Source of the DNA: a virus
Reading direction: 5' to 3' (one strand)
Virus record (IMG/VR): IMGVR_UViG_3300042882_001139
Span: 1-64,000 of that record
Length of the DNA: 64,000 bases
The notes under the pieces: model-generated
What the model was told of the DNA's origin: nothing
Database searches by the model: none
What the model saw: the letters and a program-made list of their open reading frames with translations, nothing else
Translations under genes and position numbers: made by a program
Shown here: piece by piece, positions 16,797 to 63,109 of the stretch
Numbering within the stretch: position 1 is the first letter of the stretch
Layout of the letters: the number at the start of each line of letters is the position of its first letter

Positions 16797-16811
16797 TTTT
16801 GGAGAGACGCC

Positions 16812-17837
16812 ATGGCTTTCGAAGAGAAGTTGTTTGCAAACGTCTATGACGTTGTGGCAGCATATGAAGCGGGCTTTTTGGGTGCATTATGCGATCCCGA
16901 AAAAACAGCCCAGCTTCAGGCAGAAATTGCTGCTGCGGGCGGCCTTCCCGACGGAGCCATGGCGTGCTCTACCTTTGGCCTGGAAGACTCAGGTAAAGAC
17001 AAACTCAGCCTGACGTTTCTTGAAATTCTTAAACTGTACCCGGACTGTTTGCCGGGCGGAGCACAGGGGCGCGGCGACTGCGTAAGTTGGTCGACGCGTA
17101 ACGCGTGCTTAACCACGATGTGCACAGACATCACAAGTGGGCAGCCTGACGAAGTTTCAGGCCGGCTTGAGGGTGCACCCGAGGTTAGTGACGAGGCACG
17201 CTTAAACGGCGTGTTGAGCACGGAAGCATTTTATAATTGGCGCCGGCACTCCGGCGACGGTTGGTTCTGCTCTGACGCTGTTAAAGTCGCGATGAACGAC
17301 AGCGGCATGTGGCTGCGAAAAAAGTATGACGAAATTGGTGTAGATCTGACCCGTTACAGTTCGCGTAACGCGGGGCTGTATGGCAATAAAACGCCGCCGG
17401 AAGCGTGGCGGCAAATCGGCAAAGATCATCTTATCCGCACAGCGACAGTGCTTCATACATATGAAGAACTCCGCGACATGCTGGCGAACGGTTATGGGAT
17501 TAGCTCGTGCGGTAGTGAGGGCTTTGAATCAAATCGTGACGCTAATGGCGTCAGCCGCCGCACAAAACAATGGGCGCACGCGATGGCGTATATCGCTGTA
17601 GACGACCGGCCGGAAATTATTAAACTCTACAAAGAACCGCTGGTGCTGGTCCAAAATTCTTGGGGTGATTGGAACGATGGTCCGAGAATTATTTACGGTA
17701 CAAACATCAGTATTCCCGTCGGCTCATTTTGGTCGCGATGGTCGGACATCAAGAATCGCGACATGATTGCGGTGTCTGGTGCGGCCGGTTGGCCGCCTAA
17801 GAAACTCAAGAGCTACGGCGCTCGCGGCAACATTTAA
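16812..17837 (+). CDS. Papain-like (C1-type) cysteine protease
   Basis: 341 residues. Catalytic residues of the papain fold are visible in order: Cys90 in GRGDCVSWS, His256 in QWAHAMAYIAVDD, and Asn282 in VLVQNSWGDW, the last very close to the family's QNSWG signature. The N-terminal 80 residues may be a propeptide or targeting region; no signal peptide is seen. The typical Gln of the oxyanion hole lies about six residues before Cys (here QGRGDC, Q86). It sits two genes from the metalloprotease, suggesting a joint proteolytic role, for example against host surface layers or in virion processing. Confidence 0.85.
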   Translation: MAFEEKLFANVYDVVAAYEAGFLGALCDPEKTAQLQAEIAAAGGLPDGAMACSTFGLEDSGKDKLSLTFLEILKLYPDCLPGGAQGRGDCVSWSTRNACLTTMCTDITSGQPDEVSGRLEGAPEVSDEARLNGVLSTEAFYNWRRHSGDGWFCSDAVKVAMNDSGMWLRKKYDEIGVDLTRYSSRNAGLYGNKTPPEAWRQIGKDHLIRTATVLHTYEELRDMLANGYGISSCGSEGFESNRDANGVSRRTKQWAHAMAYIAVDDRPEIIKLYKEPLVLVQNSWGDWNDGPRIIYGTNISIPVGSFWSRWSDIKNRDMIAVSGAAGWPPKKLKSYGARGNI

Positions 17838-17847
17838 CGAGGTTTTT

Positions 17848-18171
17848 ATGTTTAACTGGCTTTTTTGGTTATTAAGCCTTTTTACTGCGGCGGCGCCGGC
17901 CGACCCAAACTTTGTTCCCGCAGTGGCAGCCGAGGCCGCTTATGCGTCTTTGATTCACGTCGCGCCGGATACGGCACCAAAGCCGGACACAAAAGACTGT
18001 AAGACATGTAACGGCACAGGCCGGGTCCGATCTGGCGATGGCCAGGGTTGGACAAAATGCCCCGACTGCGAAAACCGCACGGGCATGCGGGCTATTGACG
18101 CCCCGGCGGAAAAACTAACGGCACCCGGAAAAGGCTGGCCCGCTAGAAGTGTTTCGGCTGACGCCCAGTAA
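17848..18171 (+). CDS. Exported DnaJ-type zinc-ribbon protein
   Basis: Start ATG 17848 after GAGG; an ORF from 17767 would run into the protease gene. 107 residues. The N-terminus (MFNWLFWLLSLFTAAAPA) looks like a signal peptide. A CxxCxGxG...CxxC zinc motif (CKTCNGTGRV then KCPDC, about residues 50-73) resembles half of a DnaJ zinc centre. Unknown role; an exported redox or binding protein is possible. Confidence 0.6.
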   Translation: MFNWLFWLLSLFTAAAPADPNFVPAVAAEAAYASLIHVAPDTAPKPDTKDCKTCNGTGRVRSGDGQGWTKCPDCENRTGMRAIDAPAEKLTAPGKGWPARSVSADAQ

Positions 18172-18180
18172 GGAAATTAC

Positions 18181-18675
18181 ATGTCTGTCCAGAAAATTAC
18201 TGGAAAGTGTTACACTTTCCGGGGGTTAAAGTTCTACGCTCAGAACGGCTTTGTTTGTCTTCATGACGAAGACACCGGCGATTTTTTTGTGCTAACCCGC
18301 AAAGAGTTTCTTTTGCGAGCGCAGGCACTGAGCGACGAAGCCAAGCGACTGCGGCACATTGCCGCCACAAACCCGAGTAAAGCTTCCTGGCTTTCCGCGG
18401 ATCGCATGGATTTACAGCAGGCTATTGATAATATGGTGGCCTGCACCCAGGAGGCCCGCGAGCAGGGAGACCGAAATGACCCTGTAGTCGACGAGTGGTT
18501 TAGGCGACATCGCCCCGGCAAAAAGAGTAAGATATCTTTGGCCAGCGGTGCTAATTTTAATACGGCACTGCCCGGTGTTTTACCGATCGGGAAAGATACT
18601 GGAAAGCACGTAACCCCGGACTTTACTGCCGGGCAATCCGCACCAAAGAAACTGATTTTGCCGGGAGATTTTTAA
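18181..18675 (+). CDS. Hypothetical protein
   Basis: 164 residues, soluble. It begins with a beta-rich stretch (about 1-45), continues with a helical segment (about 45-100) and has a basic/polar C-terminus. No recognised motif. It begins a tight series of genes leading to the polymerase. A virion or polymerase-associated role is only positional inference. Confidence 0.6.
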   Translation: MSVQKITGKCYTFRGLKFYAQNGFVCLHDEDTGDFFVLTRKEFLLRAQALSDEAKRLRHIAATNPSKASWLSADRMDLQQAIDNMVACTQEAREQGDRNDPVVDEWFRRHRPGKKSKISLASGANFNTALPGVLPIGKDTGKHVTPDFTAGQSAPKKLILPGDF

Positions 18676-18676
18676 T

Positions 18677-19069
18677 ATGGACATGACCCCTAACGAGGCT
18701 TTTCGGCTCGGGTTCATTACCCGCTGCGCCGAAGAGGGTCTAAACGGCGATCAACTACAGCAGCGCATTAAACTGGCAGCTGAGAAAAAAGCCTACATGA
18801 ACTACATTTTACCGACGCTGTTACTTGGCGGTGGTATTGGGCTTGCGAGCCAGGCACCTGGCGTGACGGGTACAGCACTTGGTCTGCCAGCTGCCGCCGG
18901 GCTGGGCATAGGTGCTGGCCTTGGTTACGGCGCGGCACGGGTTACAGAACCCGACATCTCAGCCGATGACATTAAAGCTATGGAACTTGCGGACACCTAC
19001 AAGATCTACGCTGCCCGGGCTAAAGCTAACCGGAAAGCACAGAAATACCGACAAAGCAGGAGCATATGA
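18677..19069 (+). CDS. Small protein with glycine-zipper membrane segment
   Basis: 130 residues. N-terminal helical motif NEAFRLGFITRCAEEGLNGD, a style (F-x-x-GF...CAEEGL) I associate with phage virion proteins. A hydrophobic Gly-rich segment (about 40-85) with two possible helices and a basic helical tail follow. No known family; possibly an ejected or internal virion protein. Confidence 0.6.
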   Translation: MDMTPNEAFRLGFITRCAEEGLNGDQLQQRIKLAAEKKAYMNYILPTLLLGGGIGLASQAPGVTGTALGLPAAAGLGIGAGLGYGAARVTEPDISADDIKAMELADTYKIYAARAKANRKAQKYRQSRSI

Positions 19070-19419
19070 GCACGCGTAAATATCACGCAGAAGTTGGTGG
19101 CGGCCAGCACGGGCAGCATGCTCTGAATTGGCCGGGCACGATGGACGGTTTTCCGGTTATTGGTAGTGATGCTGCACTTGGAAATCTTAAGCAGGATGAG
19201 GTTGAAAATCTTGAACTGCAGTACGACTTTAAGTCAAAAATGTTTGTTTTGTGGGACGAAAAGCAAAAAGCAGAGTTTGACGAGATAAACGATAAAATAG
19301 TAAACGGCTGGTATAGGCTGCTTAAACGCAGCGACCACTGGGACGAGGAAAATAATCATTACCGCGTCTGGTTAGAGTGGTTCCAGGTATACGGAATGTT
19401 GCCAACAAAAAAGAGTTGA
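19066..19419 (+). CDS. Small soluble acidic/aromatic protein
   Basis: 117 residues, rich in Trp, Tyr and acidic residues (for example KMFVLWDEKQKAEFDEI). Overlaps the previous gene by 4 bases. No motif recognised. It looks like a folded single-domain protein rather than low-complexity sequence. Confidence 0.6.
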   Translation: MSTRKYHAEVGGGQHGQHALNWPGTMDGFPVIGSDAALGNLKQDEVENLELQYDFKSKMFVLWDEKQKAEFDEINDKIVNGWYRLLKRSDHWDEENNHYRVWLEWFQVYGMLPTKKS

Positions 19420-19422
19420 TGC

Positions 19423-20445
19423 ATGACTACGAAACACGCTGAAAATTTGGCCGAGTACGCCGAAGGTGCAAAATTTAACGTAGGCGTGCCGGCCGACTCG
19501 GAAGCCGCGCGGCCGTATCACCAGCAATACGGTAAAGAGTTAATAAATAGCGCTCTCTGGGGGCTTGGGCTTGGTGCTGGTGGTACGGCACTGTATCACC
19601 TTATTAATGGTGCTGGTTCTTCGCAGTTGTCTGAGTTACAAGGACTGCTGCACAACCCGTCTCCCGAAGCGGCCCCGCAAAAAAAGCAAAAAATCAGTAA
19701 ACGGAAACAAGTAGCCAAAAAACAAGAGACCAGTTGGCTGCCGAAAAATATGACGATGCCGTCATTTAAGTTAGCCGCGGATGCGTCTGCCGGCGGACTA
19801 ATGGCGAACTTTCAAGAATCGCTGTCGAAAAATTTAATCCCGACGCAATTTATCCCTTCTGCCATCTGGCCGACTTTTGACCCAAATGCACCACCGAGTC
19901 TAAATACTGCACAGCACGGCTGGCGGCAAGCCGCGAACATTATTGCGGCGATGGGCGGTGGCTACGGCGGCATGCAACTTGTTAACTCGATGTCGGCTGA
20001 TAAGCGTAAAAAAGATATTGAAGACGAAGTCGAAACGGCTCGCCGTGCTTACTTTAATGCGTTAACCGGCAAAGAAGCGGCGGAACTTGACAATGTTTAC
20101 GCCTGTATGAAGCAAGCCGAAGCACCACCGGCACCTCCGGGCTTTTTCTCTCGTATGTCGCAGGGGTTGGGTTTGAGCAAACCAGGCGGGCCCGGAGCAC
20201 TTGAAAATGCAGGGATTGCCGCCGCACGTACCGTACAAGAAACTGGCAACAATGCGTGGACCGCCGCTTTGTTAACTGCACTTGGCACCGGCGCACTCGG
20301 GGCAAAGTACATGTATGACCAGACAAAGTCACGCACCAAGGCGGAGAATTTAATGCGGGCACGCAACTCGAAAGCCCGCCTGCAGGAACTGAATCAAACG
20401 CCGTACGTAGATCCGGACGCACTCGCCGCCCTTTCAGGGAGGTAA
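19423..20445 (+). CDS. Virion-type protein with membrane segments, directly upstream of RNA polymerase
   Basis: 340 residues. Two or three Gly-rich hydrophobic segments (about 42-62, 165-190, 280-302) alternate with basic and Pro-rich linkers. SFKLAADASAG near 112-122 again shows the K-L-A pattern. Charged helices (DKRKKDIEDEVETARRAYF) lie between. The stop is 3 bases before the polymerase GTG, and its last codons carry the polymerase's GGAGG, so the two are tightly linked. Possibly an internal virion protein that travels with the polymerase; this is inference. Confidence 0.6.
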   Translation: MTTKHAENLAEYAEGAKFNVGVPADSEAARPYHQQYGKELINSALWGLGLGAGGTALYHLINGAGSSQLSELQGLLHNPSPEAAPQKKQKISKRKQVAKKQETSWLPKNMTMPSFKLAADASAGGLMANFQESLSKNLIPTQFIPSAIWPTFDPNAPPSLNTAQHGWRQAANIIAAMGGGYGGMQLVNSMSADKRKKDIEDEVETARRAYFNALTGKEAAELDNVYACMKQAEAPPAPPGFFSRMSQGLGLSKPGGPGALENAGIAAARTVQETGNNAWTAALLTALGTGALGAKYMYDQTKSRTKAENLMRARNSKARLQELNQTPYVDPDALAALSGR

Positions 20446-20448
20446 GCC

Positions 20449-23400
20449 GTGCTGCCCTTAAACGCGCCTCAAGAACAGCCCCGCGAATTTGGCGATGTTC
20501 CCGCTTTGCGTCAAAGCATTTTTAACAATGCTTTGCAGAGTGCACAGAGCATCGAGCCAATTAAAAACGATCTGTACACGCTGCAATTAAACGACGTAGC
20601 GTACGACGGCCCGGAAGCGTTTACCAAAGCCGATCAAAAGCGTGCTGTGCTTACACGCGGCAACCTGTCGCGAAAACTCCGTGGCACATGGACGCTGACG
20701 GATAACAAGACGAATACGCCCGTCGCCAATCGGCCCGTCACGTTAGCCAGTGTGCCGTACTTAACGGACTCCGGCACATTCGTGAACAAGGGCGTCGAAT
20801 ACACGCTGGCTCATCAATTACGTTTGCGTCCCGGCGTGTTTACCAGACAAAAAGACAACGGCGAGTTAGAGGCCCACGTTAACACGCTTCCAGGTAAAGG
20901 CCGTTCGCACCGGTACTACTTAGACCCGCAAACTGGTGTGTTCAAAATTCAAATTGGGCAGGCGCAGATTCCGCTGATGCCGCTTTTGAAAACTCTTGGT
21001 GTCACAGACAAACAACTGCGTGATACCTGGGGTAACGAGATCACTGCTGTCAACATGCAGCAAGGTGACGCCGGAACACTCGACAAACTTTATCAGCGCC
21101 TTGTGTACTCGCCAGATCCGAAAGCGGATGAACTGGCGAAGATCAAGGCTATTGCCACTGAGTTCAACAAAACAGAGTTCGACGAAGAAGTCACTAGTCG
21201 AACGCTGGGCAAGCCGTACAAAAATTTAACGCCTGACGCCATTCTCGACATCACGAAAAAACTGATTGCCGTTAATCGCAAAGAGGCGGACTCGGACGAT
21301 CGAGACAGCATGGCGTTTCAGTCTGTGTTCGGCCCCGAGGACCTGCTGGCAGAGCGTTTCGTTAAAGACCGCTCGGTGCTGCGGCAACTGCTCTGGAAAG
21401 CCACGGCAAAAAAATCTTTAGACCACATTCCGACTGGCGTGTTCAATAAGTCGATTCAGGCCGCTCTTTTAGGGTCCGGCCTTGGATCAAGTCTTGAAGA
21501 AATCAACCCGGCCGAAATCTTTGACCACCAAACGCGCGTCACCCGGCTCGGCGAAGGCGGGATCGGCAGCATGGACGCCATCCCGGCCGAATCGCGCTCG
21601 GTGCAGCCAAGCCATTTCGGATTCATTGACTATTTGCGTACGCCGGAATCTGGCAAGGTCGGCGTGGACATGCGCTTTGCCGCCGGGGCACGAAAAAGCG
21701 GGAAAAACTTACATACGTTCGTAATCCCGGTGCGGAATGCAAACACCGGGAAAACCGAATACAAAACGCCGCAAGAACTTACGGACATGCCGCTGATGTT
21801 CCCCGGTGAAGACAAGTCAGATCTTCCGATGGTTGCGGCACTAGTTGGCGGCAAGATTAAGTATGTACCGCGGAAAGACGCACAGTACACCGTTCCGAAC
21901 ATGGACAACACTTTCTCGGCACTTACAAACATGGTGCCGATGAAGTCTATGGTCAAAGGGCAGCGCGTGATCATGGGCGCTCGAATGTTTACACAGGCTT
22001 TGCCGCTCGTAAACGCCGAAGCCCCGCTCGTACAGTCTGCTACAAATGACGACGAGAACATATCGCACGAAGATCTGATCGGCGCCAAGATGGGCACGGT
22101 TAAAGCAGACGAGCCTGCCGAGGTGCTACAGGTTACACCCGACAACATTGTTCTTCGGCTGCGTGACGGTACGAAAAAGACCGTCGACTTGTACAACGAC
22201 ATGCCGTTTAATCGGAAGACGTTCTGGACGCAAAAAGCAGCCGTTCAGCCCGGCGACGTGATTAAACCCGGCCAGATTATCGCCACAAGCAACTTTACCG
22301 ATAAGAGCGGAGCGGCAGCCCTCGGCATGAATATGCGTGTGGCGTATGTGCCTTTCCGCGGCAAGAACTACGAAGACGCCATCGTGATCTCGGAATCCGC
22401 GGCCAAGCGCCTAACGTCTGAGCACATGTACCAGAACGAGGCCGAGTGGGACGACAACACGCACGTCGGTAAAAAGGCGTTTGTCAGTCTGTTTCCCAGT
22501 GAGTACGACAAAAAACTGCTCGATAACTTTGACGACCAGGGCGCGATCAAAAAAGGCACGACCGTCAACTTCGGCGACCCGTTAGTGCTAGTCGCCAAAA
22601 AGAAAGAACAGGTGTACGGAAAAGTGCACCGCGGCCGGGCAGGTAGTTTCTCGAATGACACGCTGACCTGGGACCATCATTCGCCAGGTATTGTCACTGA
22701 CGTCGAGCACACAAAGAAGGGCGTGTCCGTGGTTGTAAAGAGCCAGGCCCAGATGGAGTCGGGCGATAAGTTAACTGGTCGCTACGGGGATAAGGGCGTC
22801 ATTGCGGAAGTTGTGCCGGATAATCAAATGCCGCACGACAAAGACGGCAACCCATTTGAAGTGCTTGTCAGCCCGCTTGGTTTAATTTCACGCGTGAACC
22901 CTGCCCAGATTATTGAAGCAGCGTTGGGTAAAGTCGCGGCTAAGACCGGTAAACCGTACAAGATCAAAGATTTCGACAGTGAGAAAGACCTGGTCGAGTT
23001 TGCACAGCAGGAACTCGCCAAGCACGGGTTATCTGACACCGAAGAAGTTATTAACCCAGAGAGCGGCCATAAAATTCCTGGAATATTAACTGGCCAGCGG
23101 TTTTTCATGAAACTGCACCACACGGCTGAATCCAAAGGCCAGGGCCGAGCGATGGCGGGTTATACAGCCGAAGGTACACCGGCCAAAGGCGGCTCTGAGG
23201 GTGCAAAGCGTGTCGGCATGCTGGAACTGGGGGCTTTGCTTTCGCACGGTGCTGGCAAAGTAATCCGCGACGCCAAGATGGTACGTGGCCAAGCGAACCC
23301 TGAGTACTGGTCGCAATTCATGGCCGGGTATGACGCTCCGCTGCCCAAGGTTCCACACGTGTATGAGAAGTTCGTAAATCAATTAAAGGGTGCTGGCATC

Positions 23401-24822
23401 AATACTGTGCGGACTGGAACCAAGACGCACATTATGGCCATGACAGACAAAGACGCCGCGGCCCTTACAGGCGACCGGGAACTCAAGAGCGCCGAGACTG
23501 TCGATTGGAAGGGAAATCTCAAGCCCATTAAAGGCGGCTTGTTTGATGAGTCACTTACGGGCGGTCATGGCGGCAGTCGGTGGGCAAAGATTACGCTTCA
23601 AGAGCCGATGCCCAATCCCGTCATGGAAGAACCTATTCGCCGCGTCTTGGGCCTGACAGAGAAGAAATTCCTGGGGATCTTGGCCGGCCGGGAACAACTG
23701 GGTGACGCAACAGGCCCCAAGGCTATTCAACAAGCCCTGGCCAGCATTAATCTCCCTAAAGCCATCGAGCAGGCAAGGGAAGACATCAAGTCTGGTCGGA
23801 AGACAGTTCGGGATGAGGCTGTTCGGCGCCTTGGATTCCTTAAGTCAGCCGAATCGACCAATATCCATCCGAAAGACTGGATGATTAATCAGGTTCCAGT
23901 TATTCCGCCTGCTTTCCGCCCTGTGTCGACGATGGGGCCAAAGAAGCTCCCGCTCGTAGATAACCCCAATTACCTTTACAAAGAGTTATTTGATGCTAAT
24001 TCAACACTGAAAGAAGCATCTGGGGCCTTATCAGACTATGGCGACGAGCGGCTGGCTGTTTACAACTCAATGAAGGGTGTGACTGGCTTAGGTGCTCCGA
24101 CTAACCCCAAGAACGTCGAAAAGAACGTCCAGGGGTTTTTAGCCAAGATCTTCGGCGACAGTCCTAAATTCGGCACCATGCAGCGAAAACTGCTTTCGAG
24201 CACTGTTGACTTGGTCGGCCGCGCTGTCATTACGCCGAACTCTGATCTGGATATGGACGAAGTAGCCCTGCCTGAAGAGAAAGCCTGGGATATCTACAAG
24301 CCGTTTGTTATTCGCGGCCTTGTTCGTCGTGGCTTACCTCGAATGCAGGCACTCCAGGCTGTTGAAGACAAAAACAAAGCCGCCTTCGACGAATTAAACA
24401 CCCAGATGAACGCTAAGCCCATTGTAATTAACCGGGCGCCCGTCTTGCACCGCTACGGCGTGATGGCATTTAAACCGCGCTTGACCAAAAATAAGGTCAT
24501 GGAGGTTAACCCGGTAATCACGAAGGGGTTTGGTGCAGATTTTGACGGGGACGCTATGCAATATCACGTTCCCAGCACAAATGAGGCGGCAAAAGAAGCA
24601 CTTGATAAGATGTTACCTAGTAAGAACTTGTTTAGTACGTCCAGCTTCAAGGCTCACTACGTTCCAAACAAGGATTACCAGACTGGGCTGTACCTAGCAT
24701 CGAGTAGAATAAATCAACGCAGTAAACCACGCGTGTTTAAAAGCAAACTAGAGGCTGTGGCGGCTTACCGGCGCGGCGAAATCAACGTAGACACGCCCGT
24801 ACACATTGTGGAAGATAAATAG
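20449..24822 (+). CDS. RNA polymerase beta subunit fused to N-terminal part of beta'
   Basis: 1457 residues, GTG start after GGAGG. Beta part: the MFTQALPLV region aligns with bacterial QRQAVP; VAYVPFRGKNYEDAIVISE; catalytic lysines K774 and K782 in GDKLTGRYGDKG; MPHDKDGNPFEVLVSPLG...SRVNPAQI; and a C-terminal KRVGMLELGALLSHGA. From about residue 1020 it becomes beta': GGLFDES, NQVPVIPPAFRPV, INRAPVLHRYGV, and the catalytic Mg-binding DFDGD at 1364-1368 (GADFDGD, where cellular enzymes have NADFDGD). It ends where the E. coli beta' continues toward the bridge helix. The beta' N-terminal zinc-binding segment is absent: GGLFDE is followed at once by GGHGGSRWAKI with no cysteines. The rest of beta' is in the gene at 25712. 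Confidence 0.95.
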   Translation: MLPLNAPQEQPREFGDVPALRQSIFNNALQSAQSIEPIKNDLYTLQLNDVAYDGPEAFTKADQKRAVLTRGNLSRKLRGTWTLTDNKTNTPVANRPVTLASVPYLTDSGTFVNKGVEYTLAHQLRLRPGVFTRQKDNGELEAHVNTLPGKGRSHRYYLDPQTGVFKIQIGQAQIPLMPLLKTLGVTDKQLRDTWGNEITAVNMQQGDAGTLDKLYQRLVYSPDPKADELAKIKAIATEFNKTEFDEEVTSRTLGKPYKNLTPDAILDITKKLIAVNRKEADSDDRDSMAFQSVFGPEDLLAERFVKDRSVLRQLLWKATAKKSLDHIPTGVFNKSIQAALLGSGLGSSLEEINPAEIFDHQTRVTRLGEGGIGSMDAIPAESRSVQPSHFGFIDYLRTPESGKVGVDMRFAAGARKSGKNLHTFVIPVRNANTGKTEYKTPQELTDMPLMFPGEDKSDLPMVAALVGGKIKYVPRKDAQYTVPNMDNTFSALTNMVPMKSMVKGQRVIMGARMFTQALPLVNAEAPLVQSATNDDENISHEDLIGAKMGTVKADEPAEVLQVTPDNIVLRLRDGTKKTVDLYNDMPFNRKTFWTQKAAVQPGDVIKPGQIIATSNFTDKSGAAALGMNMRVAYVPFRGKNYEDAIVISESAAKRLTSEHMYQNEAEWDDNTHVGKKAFVSLFPSEYDKKLLDNFDDQGAIKKGTTVNFGDPLVLVAKKKEQVYGKVHRGRAGSFSNDTLTWDHHSPGIVTDVEHTKKGVSVVVKSQAQMESGDKLTGRYGDKGVIAEVVPDNQMPHDKDGNPFEVLVSPLGLISRVNPAQIIEAALGKVAAKTGKPYKIKDFDSEKDLVEFAQQELAKHGLSDTEEVINPESGHKIPGILTGQRFFMKLHHTAESKGQGRAMAGYTAEGTPAKGGSEGAKRVGMLELGALLSHGAGKVIRDAKMVRGQANPEYWSQFMAGYDAPLPKVPHVYEKFVNQLKGAGINTVRTGTKTHIMAMTDKDAAALTGDRELKSAETVDWKGNLKPIKGGLFDESLTGGHGGSRWAKITLQEPMPNPVMEEPIRRVLGLTEKKFLGILAGREQLGDATGPKAIQQALASINLPKAIEQAREDIKSGRKTVRDEAVRRLGFLKSAESTNIHPKDWMINQVPVIPPAFRPVSTMGPKKLPLVDNPNYLYKELFDANSTLKEASGALSDYGDERLAVYNSMKGVTGLGAPTNPKNVEKNVQGFLAKIFGDSPKFGTMQRKLLSSTVDLVGRAVITPNSDLDMDEVALPEEKAWDIYKPFVIRGLVRRGLPRMQALQAVEDKNKAAFDELNTQMNAKPIVINRAPVLHRYGVMAFKPRLTKNKVMEVNPVITKGFGADFDGDAMQYHVPSTNEAAKEALDKMLPSKNLFSTSSFKAHYVPNKDYQTGLYLASSRINQRSKPRVFKSKLEAVAAYRRGEINVDTPVHIVEDK

Positions 24823-24838
24823 ACACAGGGAGGCTTTC

Positions 24839-25483
24839 ATGGCGATCAACCCGTATTTAATGTCGATGGCCCGCGATCAATTCGAGAAGTCGGCCGTCGT
24901 TCCGCCTGGCGGCGGTGACCCGTCTATGGGTGCAGCCCCGCCTGTTGATCCTTCTATGGGCGGTGCGCCGCCTATGGACCCGGCTGCTATGGGTGCCGTT
25001 CCACCCGCCGGCCCGGCTGCACCGGTTGATCCGGCCACCGCGATGGCTGCAATGGGAGGTGCTCCCGCCCCCGCTGCGATGCCTGCGGCTGCGCCCGCTC
25101 CCGCTGCGCCGGCCGGCGGCCAGAAGTTAAAGCCTGAGCAGATGATGCAGATGATCGATATGCGGCTGTACAACATGCAACAGCAGTTAACATCGATTAT
25201 GAACGCCATGGGCGTGCAAGTCGCTCCTGAGTCGCTTGTTCTTCCTCCGGGCACGACTGGTGCCCCGCCTGCCGAATCGGCTCTCCCCGGCGGTCCTATG
25301 GCTCCGCCTCCGCCGCAAGACCCTGCCGCGGCTGGTATGCCTCCCGGTGGTATGCCTCCCGAGGCTATGCCGCCTGAGATGGCGAAAGGTGCCAACTGGA
25401 ATGCCGGTCAGATTTTAGATCTGCATACCAAGGCGTCGGCGATCAAGGCGTTACGGAGGAGTTTAGAGAGCAATGCGGGTTAA
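24839..25483 (+). CDS. Pro/Ala/Met-rich protein between the polymerase genes
   Basis: Start ATG 24839 with GGGAGG; an in-frame GTG at 24806 lies inside the polymerase gene. 214 residues. The N-terminus has FEKSA (about 14-18), a K-x-A motif shared with other virion-locus proteins. Most of the protein is a low-complexity Pro/Ala/Gly/Met tract; a central helical segment (PEQMMQMIDMRLYNMQQQL, about 100-118) could form a coiled coil. It sits between the two polymerase genes and may be a virion or polymerase-associated linker protein. No known family. Confidence 0.65.
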   Translation: MAINPYLMSMARDQFEKSAVVPPGGGDPSMGAAPPVDPSMGGAPPMDPAAMGAVPPAGPAAPVDPATAMAAMGGAPAPAAMPAAAPAPAAPAGGQKLKPEQMMQMIDMRLYNMQQQLTSIMNAMGVQVAPESLVLPPGTTGAPPAESALPGGPMAPPPPQDPAAAGMPPGGMPPEAMPPEMAKGANWNAGQILDLHTKASAIKALRRSLESNAG

Positions 25484-25712
25484 AACGCAATTTAACCTGC
25501 AACCAGCGGACACGCCGGCCCATAGCGTCGTAATTGAAGACGACATGGGTAATCCAATTATCGTGGCAACACAACTGACCGAGTCAATTGTGTTTTCCAC
25601 GGTAAATGACCCCGACTTCCAGTCCGTGCTTCGATCTCTCGGCATTACTAAGACTGTAAAAATAACAGAATTTAAACCCAAGCCGCTTCAAGATATTATC
25701 TGGACACCGTGA
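25473..25712 (+). CDS. Small beta-rich protein between the polymerase genes
   Basis: 79 residues, predicted mostly beta from alternating hydrophobic residues (HSVVIEDDMGNPIIVATQ, TKTVKITEF). It overlaps the previous gene by 11 bases and the beta' C-terminal gene by one (TGATG), so it is translated in step with the polymerase. It may be a small polymerase subunit or regulator; that is inference from position. Confidence 0.65.
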   Translation: MRVKTQFNLQPADTPAHSVVIEDDMGNPIIVATQLTESIVFSTVNDPDFQSVLRSLGITKTVKITEFKPKPLQDIIWTP

Positions 25713-27595
25713 TGTTAAAAACCACGCTTGGTCAAATTCTGATTAACGACGCACTCCCGGAAGATCTGCGGGACTACGATCGTGTCTTAGATAAAAAGAC
25801 GATGGGTGCCTTGGCGACAAAACTAGCCGAGCAGTACCCAGACAAATATCGAGATGTCATGAAGCGGCTGCACGACGTCGCTCACGAGTCGGCCCATACG
25901 ACCGGCGGCCTGTCTTTCGGGCTCAAAGATATTAAGCAGACGCTTGCCGCTCGCCATGCCCAGATAAAGGCTCGTGCCGGTCTGCGTGCGATCATGGCGA
26001 ACGGCAAATTCTCCGAAGAACAGCGAACGCAGAAGATCCTAGAACTAGCCTCAACTATTCAGCAGAAACTAGTAGAGGACGTTTATGCCGAGGCTAAAGG
26101 TAATGATAATCCTTTGATGCACCAGGTGTTGGGGTCTGGTGTCGGCAATAAATACTCGCTGAATTCGATCATTGGTGCCGACATGCAATATGTCGACCAC
26201 AAAAACGATCCGATTCCTTTGCCGGTGCTGCACAGTTACAGCCGAGGCTTAAGACCCGCCGAGTATTTTGCGGGCGCCTTCGGCGCCCGCAAGGGTGTAA
26301 TTGATACTAAGACGGCTACGGCAGACGCCGGCTTTTACGGCAAGCAATTGACCCAAATGGCGCACCGCCTGCTCGTTACCGCCGACGATGACGATGACGA
26401 AGAATGGAACAGCACAGCGAGCGAGCGTGGCTTCCCTACAGACGTCGATGACCCGGATAACGAAGGTGCCCTGCTTTCGCGACCTGCGGGGCCGTATAAA
26501 CGAAACACGGTCCTGACGCCCAAAATCCTGCAAGACATTAAAAAAATGGGCGTCAAGGATATTCTTGTCCGCAGCCCGACTGTGGGCGGTCCGAGTGACG
26601 GCGGAGTTTTCGCTAAAGACGTCGGATTTCGCGAAAAGGGCCGGCTACCGCCGGCCGGTGACTACGTTGGAATTGCAGCAGTTCAGGCGCTCTCCGAGCC
26701 GGTATCGCAGGGGCAATTGTCGTCGAAGCATTCTGGCGGTGTCGGCGGTGCCGGGTCTATTTCTGGCTTCAAGGCGTTAAATGCCTTGGTACAGGTGCCG
26801 AAGACATACCCGGATGGCGCCGCTCACGCCCAGCGCGACGGCAAAGTGCAGGAGATCCGCCAAGCACCGCAAGGCGGCGTATACGTCACCATCGACGGCG
26901 AAGAACACTACGTCGGGGCCGACCGCACTGTCGCCGTTAAAAAGGGCGACACACTTGAAGCCGGCGACGCGATTTCAGACGGCATGCCGAATCCGGCCGA
27001 GATTGTTAAGCACAAGGGTATTGGCGAGGGCCGGCGTTACTTTACGCAAGCTATGCGGCAAGTTATGAAAAACAGCGGCATGAGCCCGCACCGCCGAAAT
27101 ATCGAATTGCTGTCGCGAGGCATTGTGAATCATGTCCGCATGCTCGACGAATACGGCGACCACGCGCCAGAAGACGTTGTGCCGTATTCGATGCTGGAGC
27201 GCAACTGGCAGCCGCGCCCGGGGAGCGTTGCGGGCAACCCTACAACGTTAACAGGGCATTATCTTGAGCGGCCCGTGCTGCATTATTCTATCGGCACAAA
27301 AATAAGTAAATCTGTCAACGAAAACTTAAAAAAGTACAACATCGCGAGCGTGCAGGCGCACAAAGAACCCCCACCGTTTCAGCCTGAAATGATTCGCGGA
27401 ATGTCAAACATCTCACACGACCCGGACTGGATGACGCGCATGCTGGGGTCGTATCAAGAAAAAGGCCTGCTGAACAGCGTACACCGCGGTTTAACGAGCG
27501 ACGCGGCCGGCAGCAGTTACGTCCCGGCTTTAGCCCGCGGCGAGCAATTTGGCGTTACAGGTGTTACAAGCGGGTGGAAGCCGGAAGGCGTTTAA
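25712..27595 (+). CDS. RNA polymerase beta' subunit, C-terminal part
   Basis: 627 residues from ATG 25712 (GTG 25709 is an alternative). The beginning TTLGQILINDALP matches the start of the beta' segment that follows the active-site domain in bacteria (TTVGRAILMNIIP). Bridge helix and trigger loop are clear around residues 180-220: RPAEYFAGAFGARKG, then TKTATADAGFYGKQL. VRSPTVGGPSDGGVFAKDVG occupies the place of the second zinc motif but lacks its cysteines. VGIAAVQALSEPVSQGQLS matches VGVIAAQSIGEPGTQLT. YFTQAMRQVMKNSGM and the C-terminal SSYVPALARGEQFGVTG complete the subunit. With the preceding fusion it makes a complete large-subunit core. Confidence 0.94.
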   Translation: MLKTTLGQILINDALPEDLRDYDRVLDKKTMGALATKLAEQYPDKYRDVMKRLHDVAHESAHTTGGLSFGLKDIKQTLAARHAQIKARAGLRAIMANGKFSEEQRTQKILELASTIQQKLVEDVYAEAKGNDNPLMHQVLGSGVGNKYSLNSIIGADMQYVDHKNDPIPLPVLHSYSRGLRPAEYFAGAFGARKGVIDTKTATADAGFYGKQLTQMAHRLLVTADDDDDEEWNSTASERGFPTDVDDPDNEGALLSRPAGPYKRNTVLTPKILQDIKKMGVKDILVRSPTVGGPSDGGVFAKDVGFREKGRLPPAGDYVGIAAVQALSEPVSQGQLSSKHSGGVGGAGSISGFKALNALVQVPKTYPDGAAHAQRDGKVQEIRQAPQGGVYVTIDGEEHYVGADRTVAVKKGDTLEAGDAISDGMPNPAEIVKHKGIGEGRRYFTQAMRQVMKNSGMSPHRRNIELLSRGIVNHVRMLDEYGDHAPEDVVPYSMLERNWQPRPGSVAGNPTTLTGHYLERPVLHYSIGTKISKSVNENLKKYNIASVQAHKEPPPFQPEMIRGMSNISHDPDWMTRMLGSYQEKGLLNSVHRGLTSDAAGSSYVPALARGEQFGVTGVTSGWKPEGV

Positions 27596-27674
27596 TGTAG
27601 GATAATAGGCTGTAACACGCTAAAGTAGTAAACAGTCAGCGTTTCGTTACGTTTAGTGCCGCATGGAGGTGGCC

Positions 27675-30068
27675 GTGTACAACAAAAGCAAAAAAGAAGC
27701 GTCGTGGCAGCACTGGCTGAAGGTAGTTAGGTCTCACGACCGCAGCCAAGTCAAACAGGCCGAAATTGGCGGCCGTGGCGATGACACTTCTTTTGAACAG
27801 GCGTTTTCTAACCTGGCCCACGCTTACTTGCGTGACTCAGCGCCCAAATTGCTTGATCACGAAGTCGGTTTCCAATTATTGGACCGCAACCGCGAGAACA
27901 CAAAAGCCGTTGGCGTATTTGCTTTTAAAGTCGGTGCCCAGTGGCTTTACGCCCCGGTATTCTTTTTAAACGGCGACTTGAAAGGGCACGAACTCCTGTA
28001 CATCAAAAATCAGGATATGTTCGTACCGCTCAAAGAAAACTGGATCAACTATTTAATCAATCGAAAGCCGAACATCCTTGGCAACGGCGTCGATCGAAAT
28101 CTGTCGAATCTTGGCCAACGGCAGCCGGACTTCACGCAACTTTCCCGCAGCCCGTCAAAGTTCGGCTCGGCGCAGCCCACGCTCAAAGAGATGATGACTG
28201 CGGCCATGCCGGCATTTGCGAAATCGGCCACGATGAATACCGCCCAGGCTTTTGCCGAACTTGGCAGTGCGATCAACCTGCCGGCGTTCTTAAAAGAAGC
28301 CAGCATGCAAATGTTAAGCACGCTGGTTAACAGCTGCAAGAAAGCCCCCGAACTCGCCGAGGCCATCGACTCGTTCCACGGTTTAAATATCGTCAAAGAG
28401 GCCGTAGCACAGGCGTCGGCTCGCGTAAGCCGCACAAAAGTGGCGAGCGTGTTGTCTGAGGCTCCCAAAACGCCAGCGGCTGAAAAGTCGCTTGAAGTCA
28501 TTACGCTCGATACGACGGTGCAGACTAAGTTACCGCCGGGTCACACAGAAGAAGACCAGGAAAAACTTTTGCGGGACGGCGTGCTGATTCTCGACAAGCG
28601 GGATCGCGACAACGTTTCGATTCCCTACCATATCCAAGTCGAGAAGCGGCTGTTTAATCCGACCGAGAGCGGTCTGTACGAAATCCTCGTCAAGCCGGGC
28701 AATATTGAACGCTGCTACGTGGCCGTATTCCCGATGGGTGCCGCCAAGCGGTCTAACTTCGTCACGGTCGTTCGCATTGACGGTAAAGCCGACTGGATTA
28801 ACACACGGGCTGACCATGTTTTTGCACTTTCCCGCGTAGAGGGCGAAGAGTTTGACAAATGGTATGACGGTCTTCCGGAAGCCAAAAGCCTTCCGTCCGG
28901 TCGCTCGCGCGTAATGCTGCTTAACAAGCGCGGCGACACTACCGCCCCGGTTCGGAGCCTTCGCGAATATGGCGAAACAAATGGCTCGACGGTGTACGAA
29001 GTGCATCTCGAGGATTACACAAAGTTTCCGCCCAAGGGCAGCATTTCTCCGTGTTGCTACTCTGACCCGCTTAATTACGACAAGTACCGCGACGGCGTGC
29101 GGCTGCATTTAAACGGTAAAAAGGGTTCGTCGCTGCGTGCCAGCATGGGCGACATCTTTGTGCCGGAAGGGTTCAAGATGCTGAAGTGCGAGCCGGGCGA
29201 AGACGACGTCGATTCGGCTGAAGGGCAGGGTGCATGCGGTTGCGGCGAAAGCAAAGATCCGCCGCTGATGCCGGGCAACCTGCTTGACGCCCAGATGGAG
29301 TTGATGCAAAAAACATCGTCTTTAACTGTGACAAATAACGGTCACGCTGTAGAGATTCACAGCGGGCAAAAACAACTCGTTGAAAAAGAACTGTCTGAAA
29401 AGCAGGCACTGGTGTCGTTAGTACGGCAGCACGGTTTACGAGAAGAAGCCGCCCGCGACATTCTGAAACAAGCGGCTGATAAACGAAAGTTTGAGTGCCG
29501 CGTAAAATATGCCGAGCCGTACGGCAGCCCGATGATGATCAACAGTGCCCCGAACGCTCCGAGTGATCCCGGCGCGGTCATGGGCGGCGAAAGCATCATG
29601 GGCACGAGCGTTCCAACACAACTCGGTATTGACGTCGGTATGCCTGTGTCGGGCATGGCTGCTAGTCAGACGGATCGCAGCGTTTACAACCCGAACACTG
29701 AGTTAGATCAAAAAGATTTACGCTCGGTAATCGACGCCGCTCAAAGCGGTCAACGCGAAGTATTTGACACAGCGATGATTGGCTCCATGTTGCGAACTGT
29801 ACGCGACGACGGCATGGTAGATCGCTACATGGGTGAACTGACAAAGGGCCTCGACAAACTGGGGCGCATCTTGTTTATGTTTTATTGGCATGGCGACCGG
29901 TTTGCCGATCGTTATGGCAAGGCCGACATGCCGGAACTGGAAGATTCGCTGCGTAACGCATTTGAGATGCTTGGCGACGTCATCTTGTTCCTGAAGCAAA
30001 AGACAATCGAGCCGTATCCAGAAGAAGCCAACAGCGACGTCGACTTAGGTCCCGTTGCCAACTCTTAA
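27675..30068 (+). CDS. Large putative virion protein
   Basis: I prefer GTG 27675 because the in-frame ATG at 27663 overlaps the best Shine-Dalgarno (GGAGGTGG). 797 residues. It contains a domain with VGVFAFKVGAQWLYAPVFFL and GHELLYIKNQDMFVPLKENW (about 80-130), an alanine-rich helical region with repeated K-x-A motifs (FAKSA, LKEAS), a beta-rich middle, a Cys-rich turn (ACGCGE, near residue 520), and a helical C-terminus. No portal or terminase motif is visible. A structural virion protein is the best guess from size and place. Confidence 0.65.
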   Translation: MYNKSKKEASWQHWLKVVRSHDRSQVKQAEIGGRGDDTSFEQAFSNLAHAYLRDSAPKLLDHEVGFQLLDRNRENTKAVGVFAFKVGAQWLYAPVFFLNGDLKGHELLYIKNQDMFVPLKENWINYLINRKPNILGNGVDRNLSNLGQRQPDFTQLSRSPSKFGSAQPTLKEMMTAAMPAFAKSATMNTAQAFAELGSAINLPAFLKEASMQMLSTLVNSCKKAPELAEAIDSFHGLNIVKEAVAQASARVSRTKVASVLSEAPKTPAAEKSLEVITLDTTVQTKLPPGHTEEDQEKLLRDGVLILDKRDRDNVSIPYHIQVEKRLFNPTESGLYEILVKPGNIERCYVAVFPMGAAKRSNFVTVVRIDGKADWINTRADHVFALSRVEGEEFDKWYDGLPEAKSLPSGRSRVMLLNKRGDTTAPVRSLREYGETNGSTVYEVHLEDYTKFPPKGSISPCCYSDPLNYDKYRDGVRLHLNGKKGSSLRASMGDIFVPEGFKMLKCEPGEDDVDSAEGQGACGCGESKDPPLMPGNLLDAQMELMQKTSSLTVTNNGHAVEIHSGQKQLVEKELSEKQALVSLVRQHGLREEAARDILKQAADKRKFECRVKYAEPYGSPMMINSAPNAPSDPGAVMGGESIMGTSVPTQLGIDVGMPVSGMAASQTDRSVYNPNTELDQKDLRSVIDAAQSGQREVFDTAMIGSMLRTVRDDGMVDRYMGELTKGLDKLGRILFMFYWHGDRFADRYGKADMPELEDSLRNAFEMLGDVILFLKQKTIEPYPEEANSDVDLGPVANS

Positions 30069-60628: not shown

Positions 60629-62288
60629 CAATTACGTATTCTCGCAGTTTAAACTTTACGCCATGATAGAAGACATCGGGCGTGTAGACGATATTGTCGC
60701 CATATCCGGCAACTTTGCGTTAAACACGATTCCAACAGCTGCACTCATTTTGGCTTGCGGTATTAACGCTACAACGAACGCGCAGGCCAGTGCCCACTCA
60801 AAAATTATGGGCAAAATAAAGTCACGTGCTCGCGTGTCCGTGTACTTAGAAGTAGACACGACCGATGGCTACAAGGAAAAAATGCCGAGCGAAAAAACGT
60901 TCATGGTGTTTGACGGATACTATGCGGGGTTTGGTTTTCAGCGTTCGAACAATAATGCAAATTACACGCTGCACCTAGTGCACTGGCTCGATGACTTAAA
61001 CATAGGCTCGATGTTAAACGGGCAGTGGTTCCCCGGGGCGCCGTTTAACGTAGCCGATAACGCGGGCTACTACACGGCGACGAACCAGGCACAGGGCTCT
61101 GGCTTTGTAATGGCCCCGGCAATTGATCCTGACAATCAAATCATAACGTATTCAAATATCACGAACGACCTGTGGGGCGATGTGCTGAAGCCTGTTCTAA
61201 CAGTTATTGCTGGTTGGGGCACGAATAAGTGCGCCACAGGCGTAGACACCGAGCATGAAAAAAAGATCAAAGCGGCCTTAGAGAAGATGCCTGGCTCCGC
61301 ACCGAACAAAGTAAAACTTGGCTTAAACCTTGACGGCCCCGGCGGGCTTACGGGAGATCTCATTAGAGATTCCGTCAACGATGCTTTAACAAAAGTTGGC
61401 GTGCAAGCGTTTAGTTACTCAACTTTTTGGAGCAAACTTACCGGCGAATACGCACCGCAATTTTTGTTCGCACTGTCGCCCGGAGTTGACTTTGCACAAG
61501 TCGTGCCTGTCTTCGGCGGGTTAAAGTGGCGCGACGGCGACAAAGTCGTTTACGCTGACGAGTACGGCTACGCTAATTTTATGGGCAACACCCGTCAAAC
61601 ACTTGGCGGCATAGACATTATCTGGCCTGCAAGTTTTGGCTCTGGTTTAGTCGCCGGCACGCCGGTACAGAACGATTATCGCCCGCCGTCGTTTTGCGAC
61701 CCGCCAGGTCTTTTTCCGTCACATGAAGCCCGCAAAACGCGGCCGGGCACTGTGCTTGTAAAAGAACCACCGAGTTGGTTCGGCAACATCATGAGCAAAA
61801 TATCGAATACATCTCGGACGGCCGGGTTAAGCGGTAGCGTGCTAGGCGCTAATAACGACGCCAGCAAAGGTGCCGACGCTACAGAAAAAGCAAAAAAAGA
61901 ATCTGAACTGCAGCAAAATATAAAAGACAGTCCGGTGTTAGACAGGTTTGCCGAACAGTGGTTTAAAACAGAATTACTGCAGCAGCGTTACGGCGAGTTT
62001 TCCGGCAAGTTACGCTTTGATATAGCTCCGGGCAGCGTCATTAAAATTAAAGCACCCACAGAAAACATGCCGCAGTTGTCAGATAACACGGACATGATAG
62101 CAACTGTCGTGCAAGTTTCGTTCTCCATTAACGCTGAAAACGCAAACGCAGGTACGGCGTTTTCCGTATCACATATTCGTTCACCTGCTGAAAACGACGA
62201 TCGTTTAATCGCTGGGTCCGACACGCCGCCGTTATACAATGAACGCTGGGCCGGCGGCCCGCTCTCCTCAAAAATTAAATACACATGA
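60621..62288 (+). CDS. Putative baseplate hub protein (gp27-like)
   Basis: 555 residues. The N-terminal beta-rich domain (VSVYLEVDTTDGYKEKM, FMVFDGYYAGFGFQRSNN, NYTLHLVHWLDDL) has the look of hub proteins that bind the spike trimer. A central alpha/beta domain and a C-terminal beta region (LRFDIAPGSVIKIKAP, MIATVVQVSFSI) follow. It overlaps both neighbours by 4-8 bases. Assignment by fold impression and order. Confidence 0.5.
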   Translation: MPDNYVFSQFKLYAMIEDIGRVDDIVAISGNFALNTIPTAALILACGINATTNAQASAHSKIMGKIKSRARVSVYLEVDTTDGYKEKMPSEKTFMVFDGYYAGFGFQRSNNNANYTLHLVHWLDDLNIGSMLNGQWFPGAPFNVADNAGYYTATNQAQGSGFVMAPAIDPDNQIITYSNITNDLWGDVLKPVLTVIAGWGTNKCATGVDTEHEKKIKAALEKMPGSAPNKVKLGLNLDGPGGLTGDLIRDSVNDALTKVGVQAFSYSTFWSKLTGEYAPQFLFALSPGVDFAQVVPVFGGLKWRDGDKVVYADEYGYANFMGNTRQTLGGIDIIWPASFGSGLVAGTPVQNDYRPPSFCDPPGLFPSHEARKTRPGTVLVKEPPSWFGNIMSKISNTSRTAGLSGSVLGANNDASKGADATEKAKKESELQQNIKDSPVLDRFAEQWFKTELLQQRYGEFSGKLRFDIAPGSVIKIKAPTENMPQLSDNTDMIATVVQVSFSINAENANAGTAFSVSHIRSPAENDDRLIAGSDTPPLYNERWAGGPLSSKIKYT

Positions 62289-63109
62289 AACCAAACATGC
62301 CGCAAACGAATAGCCCAAAAGGTATGCCGTCCATTCTGGGCGACGTCACGCCGCCATATTCGGCACCAAGATCTATTACCGGCGTCGCGCCGGAATTTGA
62401 TGACCTGTACACGACCTGGCAAACGACAAAGACGCCAGAAAACAACACCAAGGTGCTAGCCGCATTACAGCCGGTTATTGACACCGCTGTTTCGTCATAC
62501 GGTGGCGCCAACGCTACTCCAAATCTTAAGTCTCGTGCCAAACTCATGGCTCTTAAAGCGCTTGACACATATGACCCCAAACGAGGCAATGTGCGCACGC
62601 ATTTGTTGTCTCAGTTGCAAAGCCTGCGGCGGCTGTCAGCAAAAGAGCAACACATCATTAGCCTGCCAGAACAAGTAGGGCTAGATTTTCAAAAATTGAC
62701 GCTAGCTGAAAGTGAGCTTACTGATGCACTTGGCCGCGATCCGACAGACGACGAACTAGCCGATCACACCAATTTGTCTACACGGCGAATTCGTAAGATT
62801 CGTGCGTTTAATCAGCCGCTTGCAGAAGGTTCTGTTTCTCGTGTCACAGAAGAGTCAGCCGGTGGCGATGTTGCAAGTCACATCCCAGGCAGCAACCGTG
62901 GAACAGATGCGTGGATGAACTTCGTATACGACGATCTCGGACCGACCGATAAAATGATCATGGACATGACGCTGGGCAGGAACGGTAGACGACGTGCGTC
63001 GACGCAAGATATCGCAGCGCGATTAAAAATAACGCCCGGGGCGGTCAGTCAGCGTGCGGCAAAGATACAGCAAATGCTCGATAAACGTTTTGACTACGGA
63101 GGCTTTTAA
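62285..63109 (+). CDS. Sigma-70-family RNA polymerase sigma factor
   Basis: 274 residues. Region 2-like helices: KSRAKLMALKALDTYDPKRG...RTHLLSQLQSLRRL (about 95-135). Region 3-like: DALGRDPTDDELADHTNLS (about 157-175), a strong match to the usual LGREPT-x-EELA. Region 4-like with a helix-turn-helix: LGPTDKMIMDMTLG, then STQDIAARLKITPGAVSQRAA (about 242-262). Region 1.1 is absent, as in alternative sigma factors. It lies among baseplate genes but probably serves the phage polymerase at 20-27 kb or redirects host polymerase to late genes. Confidence 0.85.
   Translation: MKPNMPQTNSPKGMPSILGDVTPPYSAPRSITGVAPEFDDLYTTWQTTKTPENNTKVLAALQPVIDTAVSSYGGANATPNLKSRAKLMALKALDTYDPKRGNVRTHLLSQLQSLRRLSAKEQHIISLPEQVGLDFQKLTLAESELTDALGRDPTDDELADHTNLSTRRIRKIRAFNQPLAEGSVSRVTEESAGGDVASHIPGSNRGTDAWMNFVYDDLGPTDKMIMDMTLGRNGRRRASTQDIAARLKITPGAVSQRAAKIQQMLDKRFDYGGF

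What the first reader, a model, noticed from the sequence alone, without database searches (positions are those of the whole stretch)
20449..27595. RNA polymerase with beta fused to beta' N-part and a separate beta' C-part
Motifs of both large subunits are present: beta lysines in GDKLTGRYGDKG, beta' DFDGD, bridge helix and trigger loop, and VGIAAVQALSEP. They are partitioned as beta+beta'N (1457 aa) and beta'C (627 aa), with two small genes between. From family knowledge, cellular enzymes keep beta and beta' separate or fuse them whole; cyanobacteria and plastids split beta' near this point; phiKZ-type phages split each subunit. A fusion on one side and a split on the other looks unusual. Both beta' zinc motifs have lost their cysteines.
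Basis: partly seen in the sequence, partly recalled or inferred. Interest (0 to 1): 0.9.

Follow-up and report, generated by a model that had tools for sequence, protein, structure and literature searches.

The report
Phage RNA polymerase, fused then split
A large phage carries its own cell-like RNA polymerase in which the two big subunits are joined into one chain and then cut at an unusual place, a layout shared by many related phages including an isolated one whose particles contain the enzyme.

Summary
Window 20449-24822 encodes beta fused to the N-terminal half of beta' (1457 aa), and 25709-27595 encodes the rest of beta' (628 aa). Catalytic residues are intact. The layout recurs in 107 distinct intact ORFs from IMG/VR and in named phages (Salmonella phage Arash; Vibrio phages D69, D181, D148). 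A sister group of phages (77 distinct ORFs) carries the whole beta-beta' fusion as one chain of about 2,100 aa, and in 39 of 65 of these the two window proteins map to adjoining stretches. In trees with bacteria as outgroup the split phages form one clade; the shortest history is one fusion, then one split. The cut lies about 24-27 residues before the cyanobacterial-type cut. No alpha or omega was found. A sigma-like gene was found in 22 of 22 genomes (19 over cut-off). Published mass spectrometry of Arash particles found both pieces and the sigma, which favours a packaged, early-transcribing enzyme. Prior art: yeast cytoplasmic linear plasmids also have beta fused to part of beta' plus a separate beta' C-part, but cut elsewhere. 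My searches found no paper describing the phage arrangement. I rate it a new variant of a known kind, interesting and directly testable.

The parts
20449..24822 (+). fused RNA polymerase beta + beta' N-part, 1457 aa
20449..23430 (+). approximate beta portion (residues 1-994) of the fused protein
   Evidence: profile cut; E. coli beta alignment
22762..22797 (+). beta active-site lysine motif GDKLTGRYGDKG (residues 772-783)
23431..24819 (+). approximate beta' N portion (residues 995-1457), first zinc ribbon missing
24538..24552 (+). beta' catalytic DFDGD (residues 1364-1368)
24839..25483 (+). small Pro/Met-rich ORF between the two RNAP genes; similar sequence in 109 of 125 (redundant) near loci
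25473..25712 (+). 79-aa ORF; its stop overlaps the ATG of the beta'C gene; similar sequence in 102 of 125 (redundant) near loci
25709..27595 (+). RNA polymerase beta' C-part, 628 aa
26255..26362 (+). bridge helix (residues 183-218)
   Evidence: predicted helix; alignment
26666..26794 (+). trigger-loop region (residues 320-362), His341 aligned with E. coli His936
62285..63109 (+). sigma-70-like protein (regions 3 and 4), likely the enzyme's initiation factor

Best explanation
It is a complete, functional two-barrel RNA polymerase of a large tailed-phage lineage, made of two core chains (beta-beta'N and beta'C) plus a phage sigma, with no alpha or omega. Covalent fusion of beta to beta' replaces the alpha dimer as the assembly platform; beta'C docks to complete the bridge helix, trigger loop and clamp. 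The enzyme is most likely packed into the virion and injected with the DNA to transcribe the first phage genes. Historically beta and beta' fused once in the common ancestor and the chain was then cut once, after the beta' barrel, in the ancestor of the window's clade. Shown: sequence, catalytic residues, fold match of beta'C and of the beta half, family-wide layout, presence in Arash particle preparations (published). Inferred: assembly of the two chains, sigma partnership, injection and early transcription, replacement of alpha, order of events.
For: Residues aligned with beta D814, K1065, K1073, R1106 and beta' R425, D460/462/464, H936 are identical in 41 of 41 split and 62 of 62 whole-fusion representatives. 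Predicted folds match cellular enzymes: beta'C over its whole length, Z 31.4, 547 aligned; the beta half, Z 31.1, 428 aligned. Architecture: of 310 (redundant) loci, 187 classed fused-plus-separate-C and 33 whole fusion; over 386 loci 107, 117 and 77 distinct intact fused-N, beta'C and whole-fusion ORFs. Junction: 39 of 65 whole-fusion ORFs run from the end of the first profile to the start of the second with at most 5 residues between. beta'C is downstream on the same strand in 98 of 98 pairs found within a locus. One RNAP match per genome in 18 of 18; alpha 0 of 18 (controls 13 of 14); omega 0 of 15 (controls 14 of 14); sigma region 3 in 22 of 22, 19 over cut-off. Window sigma resembles Arash gp10 (28% over 137 residues, E 4e-19 as a single comparison). 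Arash particles: gp206 3516 spectra, gp216 1210, sigma gp10 467 (PMC10585845 passages). Split phages one clade; all fused phages apart from bacteria.
Against: No biochemistry was found. The Arash authors themselves say the enzymes might be carry-over from infection. Two-chain assembly was not modelled, and the window phage has no proteome. Absence of alpha and omega rests on profile searches that could miss diverged forms; G000 is a 123-kb fragment. The sigma profile also rang, at the loose threshold, in two archaeal controls (12 of 14 controls, 10 over cut-off), so the three phage matches below cut-off are weak; sigma factors are common in phages anyway (for the counts; the last point is recalled). 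In 26 of 65 whole-fusion ORFs the junction is less exact. Whole-fusion monophyly is unsupported under the mixture model (29), and the tree columns come from profiles built on split phages. One locus (L477) looks like beta (603 aa) plus whole beta' (1030 aa), which I take for a frameshift without proof. For the MAG phage L180 no beta'C of this family was found, only a bacterial-type match.
Confidence: 0.72

Rival explanations
1. Same enzyme, but a non-virion polymerase made during infection for middle or late genes; its presence in particle preparations is carry-over.
For: Arash authors offer carry-over as an alternative, and metabolic enzymes such as ribonucleotide reductases also appear in the particle list.
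Against: The fused protein was the most counted protein in the particles and beta'C fifth, near the major capsid protein (1333). The portal gene lies just before the fused gene in Arash. Only one RNAP match per genome in 18 of 18.
Confidence: 0.2
2. The two genes are one gene interrupted by a spliced intron, a frameshift or an assembly error, so the mature enzyme is a whole fusion.
For: Whole fusions exist in the sister group and often join exactly at this point. Inteins and probable introns do interrupt these genes elsewhere.
Against: In Arash the two genes are 4.8 kb apart with opposite-strand genes between. No Rfam match in window 19000-30000 at E up to 1. All 98 pairs keep at least 534 nt between the first ORF and the second open frame. 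The window's second gene has its own start overlapping the preceding stop.
Confidence: 0.04
3. The split was inherited from a cyanobacterial donor, since the cut is near the cyanobacterial one.
For: A review says that phiKZ-type phages and cyanobacteria share a cut after the barrel (PMC7598289, passages).
Against: In six bacterial loci with a cyanobacterial-type split rpoC (L192, L196, L201, L213, L219, L239; mostly named Gastranaerophilales or Cyanobacteria) RpoC1 keeps the TTxGR segment and ends 24-27 residues past the end of the phage match. Phage sequences lie apart from all 20 bacteria, two such loci included. Unsplit sisters exist. No photosynthetic cyanobacterium was in the trees.
Confidence: 0.03

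Closest known systems
Salmonella phage Arash gp206/gp216 (OQ632216; PMC10585845) and Vibrio phages D69, D181, D148
   Same: same partition, catalytic motifs kept; Arash has a sigma homologue, and both RNAP pieces and the sigma were found in Arash particle preparations
   Different: Arash about 32% (fused protein) and 25% (beta'C) identical to the window; annotated as beta subunits (Arash) or hypothetical (D69, D181); second zinc site kept in Arash and D69; in D181 the beta gene is interrupted by a homing endonuclease gene, and D148 shows the same in its match list
Yeast virus-like element (pGKL2) ORF6p/ORF7p RNAP (PMC6211774, passages)
   Same: beta fused to part of beta' with a separate beta' C-part; a divided ORF6 could not replace the intact one
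   Different: cut between regions beta'a15 and a16 as in some archaea; tree grouping with poxviral RNAPs; yeast host; capping enzyme and helicase partners
phiKZ/AR9-type jumbo phage vRNAP and nvRNAP (PMC7598289, PMC7824862, passages)
   Same: phage multisubunit RNAP without alpha or omega; beta' cut after the barrel
   Different: beta is also cut, no beta-beta' fusion, no recognisable sigma; phiKZ nvRNAP pieces are only weakly matched by this family's profiles
mReC (PMC7481178, about half of the text plus word searches)
   Same: metagenomic tailed phages with deep-branching RNAP alignable to bacteria
   Different: text searched mentions no fusion or split of mReC subunits; its capsid family PF07068 was not found in 19 of 19 of these genomes
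Cyanobacterial/plastid RpoC1-RpoC2
   Same: beta' cut in the same linker
   Different: cut about 24-27 residues later; beta separate; alpha and omega present (recalled)
Whole rpoB-rpoC fusions of Helicobacter and Wolbachia (recalled) and crAss-like single-chain RNAP
   Same: beta and beta' joined
   Different: no separate beta'C; cellular ones keep alpha and omega (recalled); the crAss enzyme showed no similarity to the beta and beta' profiles used for mReC

Membership tests
two-barrel multisubunit RNAP | beta and beta' barrels with catalytic Asp triad, beta lysines, bridge helix, trigger loop | tested here: met
two-barrel multisubunit RNAP | both barrels assemble with beta'C into one active enzyme | not testable with these tools
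   only single chains up to 1200 aa could be folded
mReC (Weinheimer and Aylward 2020) | study's filter: NADxDGD motif in the beta' match | tested here: not met
   window has GADFDGD; 27 of 29 whole-fusion ORFs do have NADFDGD; filter
mReC (Weinheimer and Aylward 2020) | major capsid protein of PF07068 | tested here: not met
   0 of 19 genomes; 4 of 4 other RNAP phages match, 3 over cut-off; the study detected 8 capsid proteins in its contigs
mReC (Weinheimer and Aylward 2020) | placement in their mReC clade | not testable with these tools
   their sequences were not at hand
phiKZ-type jumbo RNAP | beta also split; four or five core chains | tested here: not met
   beta in one ORF; definition
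Arash-like phage RNAP | fused beta-beta'N of about 1500 aa plus separate beta'C of about 610 aa | tested here: met
yeast VLE ORF6/ORF7 RNAP | beta' cut between regions a15 and a16 (bridge-helix and trigger-loop regions; this equation is recalled) | tested here: not met
   bridge helix and trigger loop both lie in the window's beta'C
cyanobacterial RpoC1/RpoC2 | cut after the TTxGR segment | tested here: not met
   window cut lies before KTTLGQ

The most novel reading that the evidence does not exclude
A widespread phage lineage ancestrally carries the whole bacterial-type core polymerase as one beta-beta' chain of about 2,100 aa that works without alpha or omega and with its own sigma inside the virion. 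One sub-lineage then cut this chain, once, in the linker that cyanobacteria and phiKZ-type phages also cut independently, giving a self-contained enzyme of two core chains plus sigma.
Probability: 0.6. Interest if true: 0.78.

Novelty: new variant of a known kind. Interest (0 to 1): 0.66.

Why it matters
Cellular multisubunit RNAPs assemble on alpha, and how phage enzymes manage without it is posed as unknown (PMC7598289, passages). Here a bacterial-like, readily alignable enzyme appears to replace alpha by covalent fusion and to use a sigma. That makes the question 'what is the minimal assembly of a bacterial-type RNAP?' testable with two or three proteins from a cultivable phage. The repeated cutting of beta' in one linker by different lineages suggests a tolerant seam in the enzyme. 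The clade also offers well-aligned sequences for studying where phage RNAPs come from.

Tried and rejected
Tried, little result: alignment of the cut with phiKZ gp55, gp74 and gp80 was unreliable (no Asp motif was found in the annotated gp55 or gp80, perhaps because of an intron in gp55). From PHROG matches I estimate that the phiKZ-type cut lies some 30-40 residues earlier than the window's; an estimate only. A scan with Cobetia/Yersinia phage beta' found no relatives in IMG/VR. PF07068 first rang nowhere, so I ran a positive control. The second half (beta'N) of the 918-residue model was not covered by the listed structure matches, only by sequence. No Rfam family in 19000-30000. Paper searches that could have shown a phage beta-beta'N fusion gave none. 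The library holds no preprints and lacks most subscription papers, so this does not show that none exists.

Rejected: an intron or frameshift as cause of the split; descent from cyanobacteria; filing as mReC (two features tested and not met).

Rows dropped or chosen before counts: the trees used 20 fused phages and 20 bacteria picked by hand (from 40 phage representatives plus Arash and D69, and from 80 genome loci plus E. coli); L180 and L181 went in without beta'C, and were left out of the beta' tree. The trees left out intein-sized ORFs (fused 1650 aa or more, beta'C 760 or more, whole fusions over about 2200-2230), ORFs cut by contig ends, and near-copies at 75-80% identity or more; 13 of 26 whole-fusion representatives were used, 62, 16 in its mixture tree. 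Rhizobium Y65 and Vibrio 1.031 phages were used only in the beta' tree; Cobetia and Yersinia phages were left out of the careful tree. Structure alignments used 49 and 48 of 67 representatives.
Full report
OBSERVATION. The window (part of a 123,067-bp IMG/VR virus record) has two long co-directed ORFs at the stated places. The first, 20449-24822, 1457 aa, matches beta domains and then beta' domains of Pfam; the second, 25709-27595, 628 aa, matches beta' domain 5. PHROG 24349 matches the beta part, and one family, PHROG 25354, matches first the end of protein 1 and then protein 2 in consecutive stretches. Against E. coli the family profile covers beta 112-227, 420-933, 1050-1146 and 1177-1337, then beta' 160-550; the beta'C profile starts at beta' 571. 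So the cut lies at about E. coli beta' 555-568, after the catalytic barrel and before the bridge helix. Neither protein has a cysteine.

ACTIVE SITE AND FOLD. In 41 split and 62 whole-fusion representatives the residues aligned with beta D814, K1065, K1073, R1106 and beta' R425, D460, D462, D464 and H936 are identical. Predicted model of protein 2: mean pLDDT 86, a 36-residue helix at 183-218 where the bridge helix is expected; best VIA match S. aureus beta', Z 31.4, rmsd 4.8, 547 aligned, over residues 1-628. Model of residues 540-1457 of protein 1: pLDDT 87; its first 451 residues match beta of a plastid RNAP, Z 31.1, rmsd 2.8, 428 aligned; the beta'N half matches beta' by sequence, E 1e-99. 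The two chains could not be folded together.

DISTRIBUTION. tblastn in annotated phage records gave four with the same partition: Salmonella phage Arash and Vibrio phages D69, D181 and D148 (D148 seen in the match list only; in D181 the beta gene is interrupted by a homing endonuclease gene). IMG/VR scans brought 55, 70, 27, 80, 79 and 79 loci, many redundant. Of the first 310 loci, 187 were classed as fused beta-beta'N plus separate beta'C and 33 as a whole beta-beta' fusion in one ORF; the rest were cut by contig ends, interrupted or partial. Over 386 loci there are 107 distinct intact fused-N ORFs, 117 distinct beta'C ORFs and 77 distinct whole-fusion ORFs (open frames of 2018-3596 aa, median about 2,100). 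No locus was classed as separate beta plus whole beta' except L477, which looks frame-shifted. For the MAG phage L180 no beta'C of this family was found. These scans favour the family, so ordinary-pair phages could have been missed. Cobetia and Yersinia phages have separate beta and unsplit beta' genes and Rhizobium Y65 and Vibrio 1.031 phages an unsplit beta'; they fall elsewhere on long branches.

THE CUT. In 39 of 65 whole-fusion ORFs the end of the split phages' first profile (position 1458 or later) meets the start of the second (position 5 or earlier) with at most 5 residues between; the other 26 are less exact. The two window proteins thus read as the two halves of one ancestral chain. 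In six bacterial loci with a cyanobacterial-type split rpoC, RpoC1 continues 24-27 residues past the end of the phage match, through the TTxGR segment. Solved cyanobacterial chains agree in outline: profile position 1458 falls at residue 555 of a 624-residue gamma, and RpoC2 begins near position 24 of the second profile. The phage cut is before this segment. A review states that phiKZ-type enzymes and cyanobacteria share a cut after the barrel (PMC7598289, passages); by PHROG coordinates the phiKZ-type cut is nearer the barrel still, but that is an estimate.

HISTORY. With bacteria as outgroup, split phages are one clade (SH-aLRT 99-100) in three trees, and 20 fused phages are one side of a branch from 20 bacteria (UFBoot 100). 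Whole-fusion phages are one clade under LG+G4 (98-99) but unsupported under a mixture model (29). An unbroken beta' is shared by most bacteria and whole-fusion phages, and the fusion is shared by both phage groups. One fusion followed by one split is therefore the shortest account; this is inference. Long branches (flagged) and a profile-based alignment are cautions.

ENZYME MAKE-UP. One RNAP beta match per genome in 18 of 18 records. No alpha domain in 18 of 18 (controls 13 of 14) and no omega in 15 of 15 (controls 14 of 14). A sigma region 3 match in an open frame of 226-367 aa occurs in 22 of 22, 19 over cut-off; the same profile rang in 12 of 14 controls, two archaea among them at the loose threshold, 10 over cut-off, so the three weakest phage matches prove little. 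The window's sigma is at 62285-63109 with regions 3 and 4 and resembles Arash gp10 over 137 residues (E 4e-19 as a single comparison). Many phages carry sigma factors (recalled), so co-occurrence alone is not proof of partnership.

FUNCTION. The Arash paper (passages) reports that gp206 is the most counted protein of purified particles (3516 spectra), followed by two structural proteins, the major capsid protein (1333) and gp216 (1210); sigma gp10 (467) and helicase gp217 (1148) are also listed. The authors suggest early transcription or carry-over. By homology I infer a virion polymerase for the window phage. Five of the aligned rifampicin-pocket positions differ from E. coli (the list of pocket positions is recalled), which predicts insensitivity.

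PRIOR ART. Yeast virus-like elements have beta fused to part of beta' in ORF6p and C-terminal beta' regions in ORF7p; the authors called the fusion unique, found that a divided gene could not replace it, and place the beta' cut as in some archaea (PMC6211774, passages). So the partition is known in principle, with a different cut and origin. mReC (PMC7481178, parts 1-3 of 6 read, word searches of the main text) is the nearest described phage group; 'fused' and 'fusion' occur there only for crAssphage, 'split' not at all, and two of its features are not met here. Its motif filter would be passed by most whole-fusion kin of the window (27 of 29), so kinship with mReC stays open. A hydrothermal-mat paper notes a viral RNAP gene annotated beta and beta prime at the base of the mReC clade (PMC10159854, passages), perhaps a whole fusion. 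I found no description of the phage fused-and-split layout in the searches named under Tried and rejected.

VERDICT. Real, conserved, unusual and testable; a new variant of a known kind.

Noticed in passing
L054 (IMGVR_UViG_3300022723_000184), 4658-22947: The RNAP genes of this phage are interrupted at about eight places; seven inserts tested all match a LAGLIDADG domain (one just below its cut-off) and two an intein-splicing domain. The beta'C open frame is 2254 aa. An RNAP with so many inteins is striking.
   Followed up: partly
L027 11168-12240, L032, L112 8858-10030: In-frame intein-like inserts at the TPE motif of beta and just before the trigger loop of beta'C; the L112 insert matches LAGLIDADG, the L027 insert had no Pfam match but intein-like ends by eye.
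   Followed up: partly
L128 (Vibrio phage D181) 7453-8351; L144 about 10545-11478: Insertion near Arash beta residue 517; D181 has an annotated homing endonuclease there, and L144 an HNH-like frame by eye; probably a mobile intron.
   Followed up: partly
L146, L148, L149, L150, L153, L155, L156, L157, L160: Nine Arash-side loci in which the fused chain is broken again inside beta'N, near Arash residue 1110-1146; whether a third split, an intron or an intein was not resolved.
   Followed up: no
L105 11882-14107: beta'C carries a C-terminal extension of about 740 aa with a P-loop kinase-like (AAA) domain; similarly long extensions in L125, L291, L305 and L420.
   Followed up: no
window 8250-9284: ORF with a full-length match to the Volactin actin-like family (E 2e-61).
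   Followed up: no
window 14724-15545: ORF with a matrixin (M10) metallopeptidase domain and a peptidoglycan-binding domain, possibly a lysis or entry enzyme.
   Followed up: no
L180 (JAFQXE010000002.1) and L181 (QVQF01000100.1): Contigs with this family's fused gene binned in a Thermoguttaceae and a Methylococcales MAG; possible host hints or binning errors. A 59,676-base contig of L181's MAG, the same length as L181's own, also holds a beta'C in an open frame of 1015 aa with an insert.
   Followed up: partly
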